From: Burkholderia pyrrocinia
Lineage (GTDB): Bacteria > Pseudomonadota > Gammaproteobacteria > Burkholderiales > Burkholderiaceae
Assembly: GCF_003330765.1 (NCBI RefSeq)
Contig: NZ_CP024903.1
Location: 2,728,001-2,792,000, forward strand
Length of the DNA: 64,000 bases
Direction: 5' to 3'
The translations under genes and the position numbers were made by a program. Positions 19,975-23,168 of this stretch are shown one piece after another. Under the pieces are notes generated by a model, which saw only the letters and a list, made by a program, of their open reading frames with translations, had not been told where the DNA came from and made no database searches. Position 1 is the first letter of the stretch. Every line of letters begins with the position of its first letter.

Positions 19975-21081
19975 GTGATTCATCGAACGCTATTTGGCCG
20001 GCTGCTTGCCGGTGCGGTCGTGTTTGCAACCGCGTTGCATGTACACGCGGAAAGCGCAACGGACGTTTCACCGGTCTGCACGACAGTCCGCACCGAAGCA
20101 TCCAGAGACTCACTGTTGAGTCGAGGTGGTCATTGTCAGAAATCCGTCCCGCTCGAGTATGTCGCCAAGGACGATCAAAATAGCGAAATCGGGCGAGTGG
20201 CTATCGACGCTTATGCCTATTCAGACAATCCGTCGAATCAGCTCGCATGGACCCTGAAGTTCCGTTTCCGAACCCGTGTCATTTCCGGCAACCCGGGCGG
20301 CCTGATGATCAAGCCCATCGTCGAATGCGGGTCGGCTTGTACCGTATCCCCCAATGCAGGTGTGCCGCTCGCCCTTGGCGGACTCTCCAACGAGGTGACG
20401 GTAACGGTCACGCCGAACATGGGAGCCGGTAATCCGCTCGAGTTCAGTCCGACCGTCGAGTACCGCGTCGCCAAGTCAGGCGACTCGCTCGAGAACGGCG
20501 CAAGTGTGAGTCCGTACGCGGGTGTCGGCTACATTCCTGTCATTCGCTGCGACGTCGGGCTCGCAAAAAGCAGCTCGCAAGGGTGTGTCTACCCGGAAGC
20601 ACCGGCGATACTGCGTACCATCACCGCCACGAATCCTGATGTCGACGAATCGGCCATCCATATTCGCGAGGCGCAAGCGGCCGGACATCCCGGCAGATTC
20701 GTACCGCGAGGGGATGGCACGATCTTTCCGGATACCTGGGCGTCGAAGCCTCTGGCACGCACACGCGACGCAGTACTGCGGCGACAGAATCGGGACACGT
20801 CCAAAAAGCAATGTCTCGCGATCTACGGTTCGGTCAATGGCCAGTGCACGTTCACCGGCGACCCGGACGAAACGCCGACGGATTGCGACTGCGATGAATA
20901 TCCATTTGCCTCGACAGAGGAAGGCGCATCGAGGGATGACGCGTCGGTCAAGCGTATCGATGCGAGCGATAATCGACGCGCGGGCGCTTTTCTCGGCAAT
21001 TTCTATTTGAACCAGCGCGTGCTCGATGCAGAGAAATTCTACGTCGATGTCGATTCTCAACAGCCCTCGTCGAAACGTTAA
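19975..21081 (+). CDS. Secreted NucA/NucB-type deoxyribonuclease
   Basis: The product has 368 residues. A signal peptide ends near residue 26 (ALHVHA). Residues about 55-215 form a beta-rich, cysteine-containing region of unknown role (VECGSACTVSPNAGVPLALG). The C-terminal domain, residues about 220-360, contains the NucA/NucB signature DCDCDEYPFASTEEGAS (304-319), with GNFYLNQRVLDAEKFYVDVD closing the fold. Family members are metal-dependent DNases first described in Bacillus. The GTG start at 19975 has AGGAGG four bases upstream; the ATG overlapping it is followed at once by a stop. A MoeA-like/SUKH gene follows after 77 bases on the same strand. Use as an antibacterial toxin is inference. 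Confidence 0.82.
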   Translation: MIHRTLFGRLLAGAVVFATALHVHAESATDVSPVCTTVRTEASRDSLLSRGGHCQKSVPLEYVAKDDQNSEIGRVAIDAYAYSDNPSNQLAWTLKFRFRTRVISGNPGGLMIKPIVECGSACTVSPNAGVPLALGGLSNEVTVTVTPNMGAGNPLEFSPTVEYRVAKSGDSLENGASVSPYAGVGYIPVIRCDVGLAKSSSQGCVYPEAPAILRTITATNPDVDESAIHIREAQAAGHPGRFVPRGDGTIFPDTWASKPLARTRDAVLRRQNRDTSKKQCLAIYGSVNGQCTFTGDPDETPTDCDCDEYPFASTEEGASRDDASVKRIDASDNRRAGAFLGNFYLNQRVLDAEKFYVDVDSQQPSSKR

Positions 21082-21158
21082 CCCGCAACCGACGAAAACA
21101 GTCCGCATGCCGCGGCTCGCAGGCACCTTCGAACCGCGGCATCGAGATACAAAGCACC

Positions 21159-23168
21159 ATGAGCGATCACGAGAACTTTCCCTTTTGGCTCACTCAAGCC
21201 TACGAGCGCTGTCGACGTGCCGTTCCAGGCGCGATGCAATGCGAGACGGTTTCGATCGAGGACGCAGTCACGCGGGTGACGGCGGCCGACGTTTTCGCAC
21301 CCGAGAACGTACCGTCAGTTCCACTCGCCGCAGTCGAAGGCTATGCATTGCGCGCGTCCGATACTTCGCATGCGACCCCTCGCGCACCAGTCGAACTCGA
21401 CTTCGAATTCAGCCGACGCGTACTCGCGTCGCCGACAAGCAGTCCGGAGGCACGCGCGATCGGCGCGCAGTGCGCGGTGGATATCCCGCCGTATTTTCCG
21501 TTGCCGGAGAACGCGGATGCTGTCGTCCCGAAACGCGACCTTGAAGTCATGTATCGCGGCACTCGATCTTTCATCCGGCTGCACGTCCCGTTGTCGCCTG
21601 GACAGCACGTGATCGCACCCGGCAGCGAGCATCGGAAAGGTAGTCTTCTCCTGCCCAAGGGCAGCCGGATAACGGCTGAACGGCACGTCGTGCTGATCGC
21701 GGCAGGCGTGCGCGACATCGAGGTGACGAAGCGGCCACGAATCGGCGTGGCGATCGTCGGGTACGAACATCGCCCGCCCGGCGCCGCTCGCGAGCCCTGG
21801 CAGCGGCCCGACACGAGTGGACCGTATATCCGTGCCGTATTGCAGCGCTGGGGATACGAGGTACCTCCGGTCGAGTATGTCGAGCCGCCAAACATGACGC
21901 GACCGCCGCTCGAGGTGCAACGGGACGAATATGCATTCAACAAGAAGCTGTTCGATCTCGCGCAACGTTACGACCTGATCATAGGCGCCGGATTGCCTGC
22001 CGTGCCGCCATTCCAGAGATTGGGTCTGAATGCGCAGCCGATGTACTCGAACGACGAGACTACCGTCGACATCCAGCAAACGCCGGCCGGCCGCTTCAAC
22101 TTCGGGCGCAGCAGCGATCGCTCGCCGCCGACGAAGACCACGCTGCCGTACACGCGCCCCGACGGCACACAAAGCGGGCTGCGGGTCCTCACCAGTTACG
22201 ATCAGGCAACGCTGATCAATCTGCCTGGCCACACGTGTGCGGTGGCGATGCTGATGCATGCGATCATGCCGCGCGTGCTCGATTTGCTCGAGCACGCGGC
22301 AACGCCGGCCCCGCATTGGGAAACTGCCGTCATCGGGCACCTCGTCGAGCGCAATGCCGAACTCAACGGAATGCAGTGGGGCAACCTGTATCGGGACGTC
22401 GACGGCAACTCGTTCGTCCGCCTGCTACCGTCCGAAGCCGATGGGTCGATCAGCGGCATCGCTCGTGCCGATGTACTCGTCGCGATCCCCGCCGCGAAAC
22501 ACCCGTTGCCGGCGGGCTCGTCCGTGCTGTTCCTGCGTCTCGACCGTGTCTGCCCGGGCGTGCCGCCGAGCGATGCTGCAACGACGGCCGCCGACGCAGC
22601 GTCGCCACCTTTGACAGTCGGTGGCACCCCGAATCCGCCCCGCGATTCCGGGGTCGGGCCCACCGATCTTCGCGCGACGTGGCAACGACTCGACGCCGGC
22701 TTCGCCGCCGATTCGACGCGTTTGCCGGTCGGACTCAACGGAGCGGCGTCCGACGACGAGATCGCAACCCTGCAGGCCGCGCTGGGAGCCGTACTACCTG
22801 ATGCATTCGTCGACAGTCTGCGCATTCACAATGGCCAGGCCGACCCCGGAGACGAATTTTCCGGAAGCGATGCGCTGTTGAGTTCGGGCGAGATCATCGC
22901 GCAATGGCGCATCTGGAAAGGTCTGGTCGATGGCGGGGATTTCGACGGTGTGACATCGGAACCGGATCCCGGTATCCGGGACGACTGGTACAACCTGAAG
23001 TGGATACCGTTCACGCACGACGGTAGCGGCAATCATCTGTGTCTCGATCTCGATCCCGCAGAAGGCGGTGTGGTCGGACAAGTGATTCGGGTCTGGCATG
23101 ACGATGAGCGGCGCGAGCGGATTGCGGGTGGGTTTCCGGAATGGCTCGCTCGCATCGCCGCCGAGTGA
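21159..23168 (+). CDS. MoeA-like protein with a C-terminal SMI1/KNR4 (SUKH) domain
   Basis: The 669-residue protein appears to be a fusion. Residues about 10-190 resemble MoeA domains I and II (VPLAAVEGYALRAS at 55-68; PLPENADAVVPKRDLEV at 114-130; GSLLLPKGSRITAERHVVLI). Residues 193-380 resemble the MoaB/MogA-like domain (KRPRIGVAIVGYE; TLINLPGHTCAVAMLMHAIM), and 385-460 resemble MoeA domain IV. A proline/alanine linker (465-500) leads to a SUKH domain at 504-660 with LRIHNGQADPGDEF, WIPFTHDGSGNHLCLDLDP and GQVIRVWHDD. MoeA inserts molybdenum into molybdopterin, but key residues look altered (M-D-G-Y is V-E-G-Y; the S-G-G-V-S-V-G-D motif is absent). SUKH proteins often neutralise nuclease toxins, and a nuclease gene precedes it. 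Immunity is therefore plausible, not shown. Confidence 0.75.
   Translation: MSDHENFPFWLTQAYERCRRAVPGAMQCETVSIEDAVTRVTAADVFAPENVPSVPLAAVEGYALRASDTSHATPRAPVELDFEFSRRVLASPTSSPEARAIGAQCAVDIPPYFPLPENADAVVPKRDLEVMYRGTRSFIRLHVPLSPGQHVIAPGSEHRKGSLLLPKGSRITAERHVVLIAAGVRDIEVTKRPRIGVAIVGYEHRPPGAAREPWQRPDTSGPYIRAVLQRWGYEVPPVEYVEPPNMTRPPLEVQRDEYAFNKKLFDLAQRYDLIIGAGLPAVPPFQRLGLNAQPMYSNDETTVDIQQTPAGRFNFGRSSDRSPPTKTTLPYTRPDGTQSGLRVLTSYDQATLINLPGHTCAVAMLMHAIMPRVLDLLEHAATPAPHWETAVIGHLVERNAELNGMQWGNLYRDVDGNSFVRLLPSEADGSISGIARADVLVAIPAAKHPLPAGSSVLFLRLDRVCPGVPPSDAATTAADAASPPLTVGGTPNPPRDSGVGPTDLRATWQRLDAGFAADSTRLPVGLNGAASDDEIATLQAALGAVLPDAFVDSLRIHNGQADPGDEFSGSDALLSSGEIIAQWRIWKGLVDGGDFDGVTSEPDPGIRDDWYNLKWIPFTHDGSGNHLCLDLDPAEGGVVGQVIRVWHDDERRERIAGGFPEWLARIAAE

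What the first reader, a model, noticed from the sequence alone, without database searches (positions are those of the whole stretch)
19975..23168. Secreted NucA/NucB nuclease gene paired with a MoeA-like/SUKH fusion
A signal-peptide NucA/NucB nuclease (signature at residues 304-319) is followed after 77 bases by a protein that ends in a SMI1/KNR4 domain. SUKH domains are known immunity modules for nuclease toxins, so the pair looks like a toxin with its antidote. Two things are odd: the SUKH domain is attached to a degenerate MoeA-like region, and the nuclease has a Sec signal peptide instead of a contact-dependent or T6SS delivery domain. I know of no described system with this arrangement. 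Co-expression is inferred from spacing and direction only.
Basis: partly seen in the sequence, partly recalled or inferred. Interest (0 to 1): 0.8.

Follow-up and report, generated by a model that had tools for sequence, protein, structure and literature searches.

The report
Secreted nuclease with two-headed antidote partner
Next to a gene for a predicted DNA-cutting enzyme that is likely secreted, this Burkholderia carries a gene for a protein joining an apparently dead cofactor-making enzyme to a domain family known for blocking bacterial toxins; the two genes stay together across related species, and the second likely encodes the antidote to the first.

Summary
19975-21081 encodes a NucA/NucB nuclease with a Sec-type signal peptide and the catalytic residues in place. 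21159-23168 encodes a real, conserved fusion of a whole MoeA/gephyrin-E fold to a SUKH-1 domain. The pairing is conserved: all 12 apparently sound close nuclease genes found in held Burkholderia and Trinickia-type genomes (one cut by a contig end) are followed, same strand, 18-87 bases on, by MoeA-SUKH, in eight different flanking settings. The nuclease was apparently lost or decayed at least four times while MoeA-SUKH stayed intact under purifying selection; a sound close nuclease without the partner was not seen. That asymmetry is what an immunity gene shows. The core is not new: Zhang et al. 2012 list this nuclease domain (Tox-ComI) as a toxin with Sec/T2SS export and Imm-SUKH or Imm-ComJ as immunity. 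What I found in no paper search is the MoeA part: key molybdopterin-site residues are gone in 45 of 45 fusions, yet it is conserved, and it also occurs without SUKH beside damaged nuclease genes in Trinickia. A predicted hairpin lies between the genes in ten of ten wide-spaced pairs. Verdict: a new variant of a known kind. Activity, inhibition, binding and delivery are untested.

The parts
19975..20049 (+). Predicted Sec signal peptide of the nuclease (about residues 1-25, ...LLAGAVVFATALHVHA)
   Evidence: sequence; a hydrophobic N-terminal 10-mer is present in 39 of 40 full-length close relatives. Cleavage site judged by eye, no signal-peptide program was available
20092..20592 (+). Ig-like beta-sandwich domain of the nuclease protein (about residues 40-206), role unknown
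20602..21054 (+). NucA/NucB nuclease domain (about residues 210-360); D307, E308 and N333 align with B. licheniformis NucB D93, E94, N117
19975..21081 (+). Predicted secreted NucA/NucB nuclease gene, 368 aa, GTG start, GC3 0.64 against 0.83 in the gene upstream
21107..21142 (+). Predicted intergenic hairpin (13-position arms with one mismatch, 10-base loop), ending 16 bases before the MoeA-SUKH start; no T tract after it
   Evidence: some pairs with changes on both sides in two clades; no Rfam match
21183..22553 (+). MoeA/gephyrin-E-like module (residues 9-465) lacking key molybdopterin-site residues
22554..22658 (+). Linker (residues 466-500): pLDDT under 50 over 464-500; dN/dS 0.55-0.83 (residues 466-503) against 0.13-0.34 in the two modules
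22659..23165 (+). SUKH-1 (SMI1/KNR4) domain (residues 501-669)
21159..23168 (+). MoeA-SUKH fusion gene, 669 aa, no signal peptide recognised by eye, predicted cytosolic immunity protein

Best explanation
The two genes are a conserved pair, likely an operon, in which the predicted secreted NucA/NucB enzyme would act as an antibacterial DNase and the adjacent MoeA-SUKH protein is likely its cytosolic antidote. Steps: (1) the nuclease is made with a Sec signal and probably leaves through the type II route; export is inferred. (2) Its NucB active-site residues are in place; activity is inferred. (3) MoeA-SUKH has no signal recognised by eye and would stay in the cytosol, where it would bind nuclease that has not been exported or that comes in from neighbours; binding is untested. 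(4) The SUKH domain probably binds the nuclease domain, as SUKH proteins do for a WHH nuclease effector; covering the catalytic face is a guess. (5) The MoeA fold, which has lost its enzyme motifs, probably works as a dimeric scaffold and second binding head, as gephyrin and the actinobacterial MoeA that binds FtsZ use this fold to grip other proteins; this step is the least certain. (6) Species that lost the nuclease keep the antidote, as orphan immunity does.
For: Same order and strand in 12 of 12 apparently sound close nuclease genes (57-100% identity; one cut by a contig end) of held genomes, spacing 18-87 bases, plus two named records, B. cenocepacia NZ_CP091013 and B. stagnalis NZ_CP156686. 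Flanks differ: 8 upstream groups among 13 pairs and 9 downstream groups among 14 by blastn. Association in the genus: 7 of 7 genomes with a sound nuclease have full MoeA-SUKH against 11 of 58 others, Fisher p 4.6e-5, not corrected for kinship. One-way loss: 8 genomes of one clade and G020 have MoeA-SUKH and no nuclease match, and G013 (twice) and G023 have nuclease remnants beside full MoeA-SUKH. MoeA-SUKH stays under purifying selection in the orphan clade: median dN/dS 0.34 over 28 pairs. Ten cysteine columns in the nuclease, nine of them cysteine in 40 of 40, fit an exported protein; a GspD gene is in the genome. Precedents: Tox-ComI with Imm-ComJ/Imm-SUKH; Nin inhibits NucA and NucB in lysates; SUKH proteins, orphans included, bind and neutralise a nuclease effector (preprint).
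Against: No interaction or toxicity data. No delivery domain or receptor-binding part is recognised, so entry into target cells is unexplained. Two more distant nucleases in the family sample (G179, G238; 38-41% identity over residues 189-352) have no MoeA-SUKH. A nuclease remnant in G069 and one in G178 (C1) do not lie beside a partner. Three Trinickia-type loci have the MoeA part without SUKH beside damaged nuclease genes, so SUKH is not always present. Acinetobacter carries the SUKH-less MoeA-like protein widely, and the three copies examined have no nuclease beside them, which suggests that the module has another role too. Selection on the orphans is somewhat weaker than on the paired copies (0.34 against 0.24). 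Mirror-tree partial correlations do not single out either module once lengths are matched.
Confidence: 0.7

Rival explanations
1. Self-protection only, barnase-barstar (recalled) or NucA-Nin style: the nuclease is an ordinary extracellular DNase for feeding on or remodelling extracellular DNA, and MoeA-SUKH only neutralises precursor left in the producer's cytosol. No attack on neighbours.
For: No toxin-delivery domain is recognised; B. licheniformis NucB is a biofilm-dispersing extracellular DNase and Nin inhibits its B. subtilis kin.
Against: MoeA-SUKH is kept under purifying selection where the nuclease is gone (8-genome clade) and intact in G020, which pure self-protection does not predict.
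Confidence: 0.17
2. MoeA-SUKH is an export escort: the MoeA part holds the nuclease unfolded and hands it to Sec, and SUKH is an accessory. Inhibition would be a side effect.
For: Both modules look cytosolic and are tied to a signal-peptide protein; SUKH-less MoeA also sits beside nuclease genes in Trinickia-type genomes.
Against: An escort should be lost with its client; instead it outlives it. I know of no MoeA-fold export chaperone (recalled).
Confidence: 0.05
3. MoeA-SUKH has a nuclease-independent job (for example a metabolic or division scaffold, as with the actinobacterial MoeA that binds FtsZ) and the nuclease is a frequent passenger.
For: Orphans under selection; widespread SUKH-less homologues in Acinetobacter; MoeA2-FtsZ complex 8bvf among the structure matches.
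Against: A passenger would not be expected beside this one gene in 12 of 12 sound close cases and in eight flanking settings, nor does it explain a domain from a nuclease-immunity family.
Confidence: 0.07
4. Chance neighbours.
For: None after the comparative search.
Against: 12 of 12 conserved order in genomes whose partner proteins are 40-77% identical to this one.
Confidence: 0.01

Closest known systems
Tox-ComI polymorphic toxins with Imm-SUKH or Imm-ComJ (Zhang et al. 2012, PMC3482391)
   Same: Same nuclease superfamily (ComI/NucA, DE dyad), toxin gene followed by immunity gene, SUKH as one listed immunity, T2SS (signal peptide) as one listed export route
   Different: No MoeA module is mentioned in the held text; here the nuclease carries an Ig-like domain and no recognised toxin-delivery domain, and the immunity protein is a 669-aa fusion
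Bacillus subtilis NucA (ComI) and its inhibitor Nin (ComJ)
   Same: Nuclease of the same family with its inhibitor encoded next door; Nin inhibits NucA and NucB in lysates
   Different: Pfam finds no ComJ/Nin domain in the partner; 18 kDa there against 669 aa here
SUKH orphan immunity of Bacteroidales rAID systems (PMC12247911, preprint)
   Same: SUKH proteins without a cognate toxin in the genome still neutralise a nuclease effector
   Different: Dual-SUKH, not MoeA-SUKH; T6SS WHH nuclease effector
Tde5 with Tdi5a and Tdi5b (PMC13392607)
   Different: Two separate proteins, T6SS effector; no SUKH, MoeA or NucA in the text
MoeA / gephyrin E domain / Glp (MoeA2)
   Different: Key molybdopterin-site residues lost in 45 of 45 fusions

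Membership tests
NucA/NucB (ComI) nuclease | PF14040 domain above its cut-off | tested here: met
   49.6 bits against 23.8
NucA/NucB (ComI) nuclease | Catalytic D-E dyad and metal-binding N (BlNucB D93, E94, N117) | tested here: met
   D307, E308, N333 by PDB alignment; 50, 50 and 49 of 50 aligned proteins. The equivalent of His53 is probably H229, judged from aligned ranges only
NucA/NucB (ComI) nuclease | DNase activity | not testable with these tools
   needs an assay
SUKH-1 (SMI1/KNR4) | PF09346 above its cut-off and SUKH fold | tested here: met
MoeA molybdotransferase | MoeA fold | tested here: met
   MoeA_N 92.4 bits against 30.8; structure match over residues 9-465
MoeA molybdotransferase | Conserved molybdopterin-site motifs (GGxSxGxxD, PGKP, LPGNP; motif names recalled) | tested here: not met
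   second G 0 of 45, following D 0 of 45, K 0 of 45, N 0 of 45 fusions; 8, 7, 3 and 7 of 8 MoeA controls, so K alone tells little. The D of MDGYA is kept in 12 of 42 fusions with a letter there and 8 of 8 controls
Polymorphic-toxin-type toxin-immunity pair (Tox-ComI / Imm-SUKH) | Toxin gene followed by immunity gene, conserved across genomes | tested here: met
   12 of 12 apparently sound close nuclease genes in held genomes
Polymorphic-toxin-type toxin-immunity pair (Tox-ComI / Imm-SUKH) | Variable C-terminal toxin domains on a shared N-terminal delivery part | tested here: inconclusive
   Precomputed domains of the 68 listed relatives are PF14040 (66) or none (2); the search uses words of the query and would favour that
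Polymorphic-toxin-type toxin-immunity pair (Tox-ComI / Imm-SUKH) | Partner neutralises the toxin | not testable with these tools
   no complex prediction or assay
ComJ/Nin inhibitor | ComJ/Nin domain in the partner | tested here: not met
   Pfam lists only MoeA, MoCF and SUKH families up to E 1

The most novel reading that the evidence does not exclude
A dead molybdenum-cofactor enzyme has become an immunity module: MoeA-SUKH is a two-headed antidote in which the gephyrin-like MoeA dimer grips an exosite of the secreted nuclease while SUKH plugs its active site, and the degenerate MoeA family, with or without SUKH, across Burkholderia, Trinickia and Acinetobacter is a new class of immunity proteins.
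Probability: 0.33. Interest if true: 0.78.

Novelty: new variant of a known kind. Interest (0 to 1): 0.6.

Why it matters
Immunity proteins are usually small binding domains (general knowledge). Here one is fused to a whole repurposed metabolic enzyme fold that is conserved although its enzyme motifs are gone. If the MoeA part binds the nuclease, the MoeA/gephyrin fold would gain a new role as a toxin inhibitor, and proteins now named after molybdenum cofactor biosynthesis in Burkholderia and Acinetobacter records would be misnamed. The orphan copies would also be evidence that a plain Sec-exported nuclease is used against neighbours, which bears on how such DNases get into other cells.

Tried and rejected
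Chance pairing: rejected. MoeA part still an enzyme: judged unlikely on motif loss; four further MoeA-type matches exist in the genome, three of them listed. Tox-NucA of Zhang et al. as the same family: rejected, that name there means an HNH nuclease (GH, N, N, E); the right entry is Tox-ComI.

Another toxin beside the orphan copies: my ORF picker gave high-GC antisense frames there; I saw nothing convincing, and did not scan those neighbours against Pfam except two. A recombinase-linked orphan system as in Bacteroidales: the integrase-family gene beside the orphans matches at 90-95% identity in 4 of 6 checked genomes from other lineages (G000, G011, G005, G017) besides one orphan genome, so it is a resident gene and no specific link is claimed. 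Nuclease-MoeA pairs in Acinetobacter: not settled; plasmid, phage, viral-contig, class-level and protein searches gave Acinetobacter MoeA-like genes without a nuclease beside them in the three copies examined, and Acinetobacter nucleases (P0048, P0051) whose neighbours I could not see. First alignment of all ten hairpins misplaced the two clades and was replaced by one alignment per clade. The hairpin does not look like a canonical terminator: no T tract follows it; the scan does not list it, but its loop limit of 8 would leave it out anyway. Papers: searches for SUKH with MoeA, NucA, gephyrin, SMI1/molybdopterin, Burkholderia, for Tox-ComI, NucB/Nin and MoeA-like immunity and PDC-M40 showed no report of the fusion in the rows listed; most subscription papers are not held, and a paper I recalled as the original SUKH paper is not held under the DOI I tried.

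Paper basis: PMC3482391, PMC5758888 and PMC12247911 by passages only; PMC13392607 outline, abstract and passages; all others by search listing only.
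Full report

Conserved pairing. Among 65 Burkholderia genomes, 10 hold a nuclease match at E 1e-8, 7 of them apparently sound, and 20 hold a MoeA-SUKH match at E 1e-25, 18 of them full length. All 7 sound nucleases are directly followed by MoeA-SUKH. In a sample of 398 genomes of the family, 19 have a nuclease match: the same 10 Burkholderia, 7 of genus g49 and 2 of another genus. In g49, 4 sound nucleases and 1 cut by a contig end are each followed by full MoeA-SUKH. 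That makes 12 of 12; the stop reported inside the G207 nuclease is its terminal one. The 2 distant ones (G179, G238) have no MoeA-SUKH, and remnants in G069 and G178 (C1) do not lie beside one. Two named records, B. cenocepacia NZ_CP091013 and B. stagnalis NZ_CP156686, add two pairs. Spacing, measured to the aligned start, is 18-25 bases in four g49 pairs and 77-87 in the other eight. The 3-kb flanks fall into 8 upstream groups (13 pairs with enough sequence) and 9 downstream groups (14 pairs) by blastn, so the pair seems to travel as a unit; the low GC3 of the nuclease gene (0.64) fits that.

One-way loss. Eight Burkholderia genomes forming one clade carry MoeA-SUKH with no nuclease match; G020 also has none although its sister G081 has the pair; G013 (two loci) and G023 keep only pieces of the nuclease beside a full MoeA-SUKH. 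On the tree, read by parsimony, this is at least four separate losses or decays. The nuclease and partner trees show compatible groups, but many nuclease forks are weakly supported (2 of 15 starred). The opposite case, a sound close nuclease without the partner, was not seen in these genomes. The orphan clade stays under purifying selection (median dN/dS 0.34 over 28 pairs, against 0.24 in paired groups). This is what an immunity gene is expected to do, and SUKH orphans have been reported to protect against a nuclease effector in Bacteroidales (PMC12247911, preprint, passages).

Variants without SUKH. Three g49 loci (L095, L096, L100) have a MoeA-like part without SUKH beside shortened or interrupted nuclease genes. 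In L095 and L100 the MoeA-like frame is open through to a stop right after domain IV; in L096 only about the last two thirds align. The stops flagged are these terminal ones. The 423-residue protein P0118 of T. caryophylli corresponds to L100. The opposite, SUKH without MoeA, occurs in B. lata (L041 and L099, one place seen in two collections) and as a separate 185-residue ORF in G084. Acinetobacter carries a SUKH-less MoeA-like protein of about 463-475 residues widely: 98 relatives listed, the named ones almost all Acinetobacter. In 72,556 plasmid records, at E 1e-20 or better, it matches only 5, Acinetobacter and the Burkholderia fusions, so it belongs with the fusion's MoeA part rather than with ordinary MoeA. 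The three copies whose neighbours I saw have no nuclease beside them. These facts allow two readings: MoeA is itself an immunity module, or it has an additional task.

Intergenic hairpin. In the ten pairs with the wide spacer (seven held Burkholderia genomes, G207, B. cenocepacia, B. stagnalis) the best stem, 10-16 positions per arm, lies 15-25 bases before the MoeA-SUKH start. The stem score beats the best of 30 shuffles in 6 of 10, ties in 1 and falls short in 3; energy z-scores run from -0.9 to -4.2. So single sequences are often unremarkable and the case rests on the fixed place and on paired changes. In one clade's alignment of 7 (2 nuclease-dead), 3 of 13 pairs changed on both sides, a count reached by 10 of 500 shuffles; in the other's alignment of 6 (5 distinct, 1 nuclease-dead), 2 of 15, reached by 86 of 500. 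Sliding the arms lowers both. The hairpin is still recognisable in the three nuclease-dead loci. In the four compact g49 spacers and the nine orphan loci no stem exceeds its shuffles. It has no T tract and no Rfam match. I take it as an mRNA element that sets the ratio of nuclease to partner; this is inference.

Known and new. Zhang et al. 2012 name this nuclease domain Tox-ComI, list T2SS and T6SS as export and Imm-ComJ and Imm-SUKH as immunity, and note that the nuclease-inhibitor operon of B. subtilis resembles toxin-immunity pairs (PMC3482391, passages). So nuclease plus SUKH with a signal peptide is a known predicted kind. MoeA is not in the held text of that paper (first 300,000 of 357,715 characters held), and my paper searches listed no report of a MoeA-SUKH protein. 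I therefore file it as a new variant of a known kind.

Mechanism. Most likely the nuclease is exported through Sec and the type II route (a GspD gene is present), and MoeA-SUKH neutralises cytosolic nuclease by binding. SUKH binding follows the SUKH precedent; its place on the nuclease is a guess. MoeA as dimer scaffold and second head is a proposal that borrows from gephyrin and the FtsZ-binding MoeA2 (entry titles) and from the two-inhibitor DNase Tde5 (PMC13392607, abstract). Shown here: domains, residues, conserved pairing, loss pattern, selection, motif loss. Inferred: export, DNase activity, co-transcription, inhibition, binding geometry, antagonism, role of the hairpin. How the nuclease would enter another cell is open.

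Noticed in passing
window 21107-21142: Predicted intergenic hairpin before the MoeA-SUKH start, at the same place in ten of ten wide-spaced pairs, with some paired changes on both sides; also recognisable in three nuclease-dead loci, not in orphan or compact loci.
   Followed up: partly
L116:5977-7380, L114:4258-5649, L115:6034-7425: SUKH-less degenerate MoeA-like proteins (463-467 aa) widespread in Acinetobacter, also on small plasmids, named after molybdenum cofactor biosynthesis in many records; function unknown.
   Followed up: partly
L095:6767-8873, L096:6724-8958, L100:6025-7876: Trinickia-type loci with a MoeA-like part lacking SUKH beside shortened or interrupted NucB genes.
   Followed up: partly
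L033:7995-11869, L047:5605-9701: Orphan MoeA-SUKH genes sit next to a phage-integrase-family gene (DUF3701); that gene is also present at 90-95% identity in genomes without the orphan, so it may only mark a landing site.
   Followed up: partly
window 22671-23156: The SUKH domain scores 3.2e-52 against PADLOC candidate defence model PDC-M40A; no paper in the library searched names that system.
   Followed up: partly
L102:5907-7346, L103:6183-7637: Another Burkholderiaceae genus (g27) has lipoprotein-like or secreted NucB proteins of about 480 aa with the same CDEYPFAS motif and no MoeA-SUKH in the genome.
   Followed up: no
L112 (G569:C52): A PF14040 nuclease domain in an open frame of 1168 codons in a distant gammaproteobacterium, possibly a large polymorphic toxin.
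   Followed up: no
L058 (G033:C3:112757-112954): A 62%-identical fragment of the MoeA part (residues 325-390) on another replicon, probably the remnant of a second copy.
   Followed up: no
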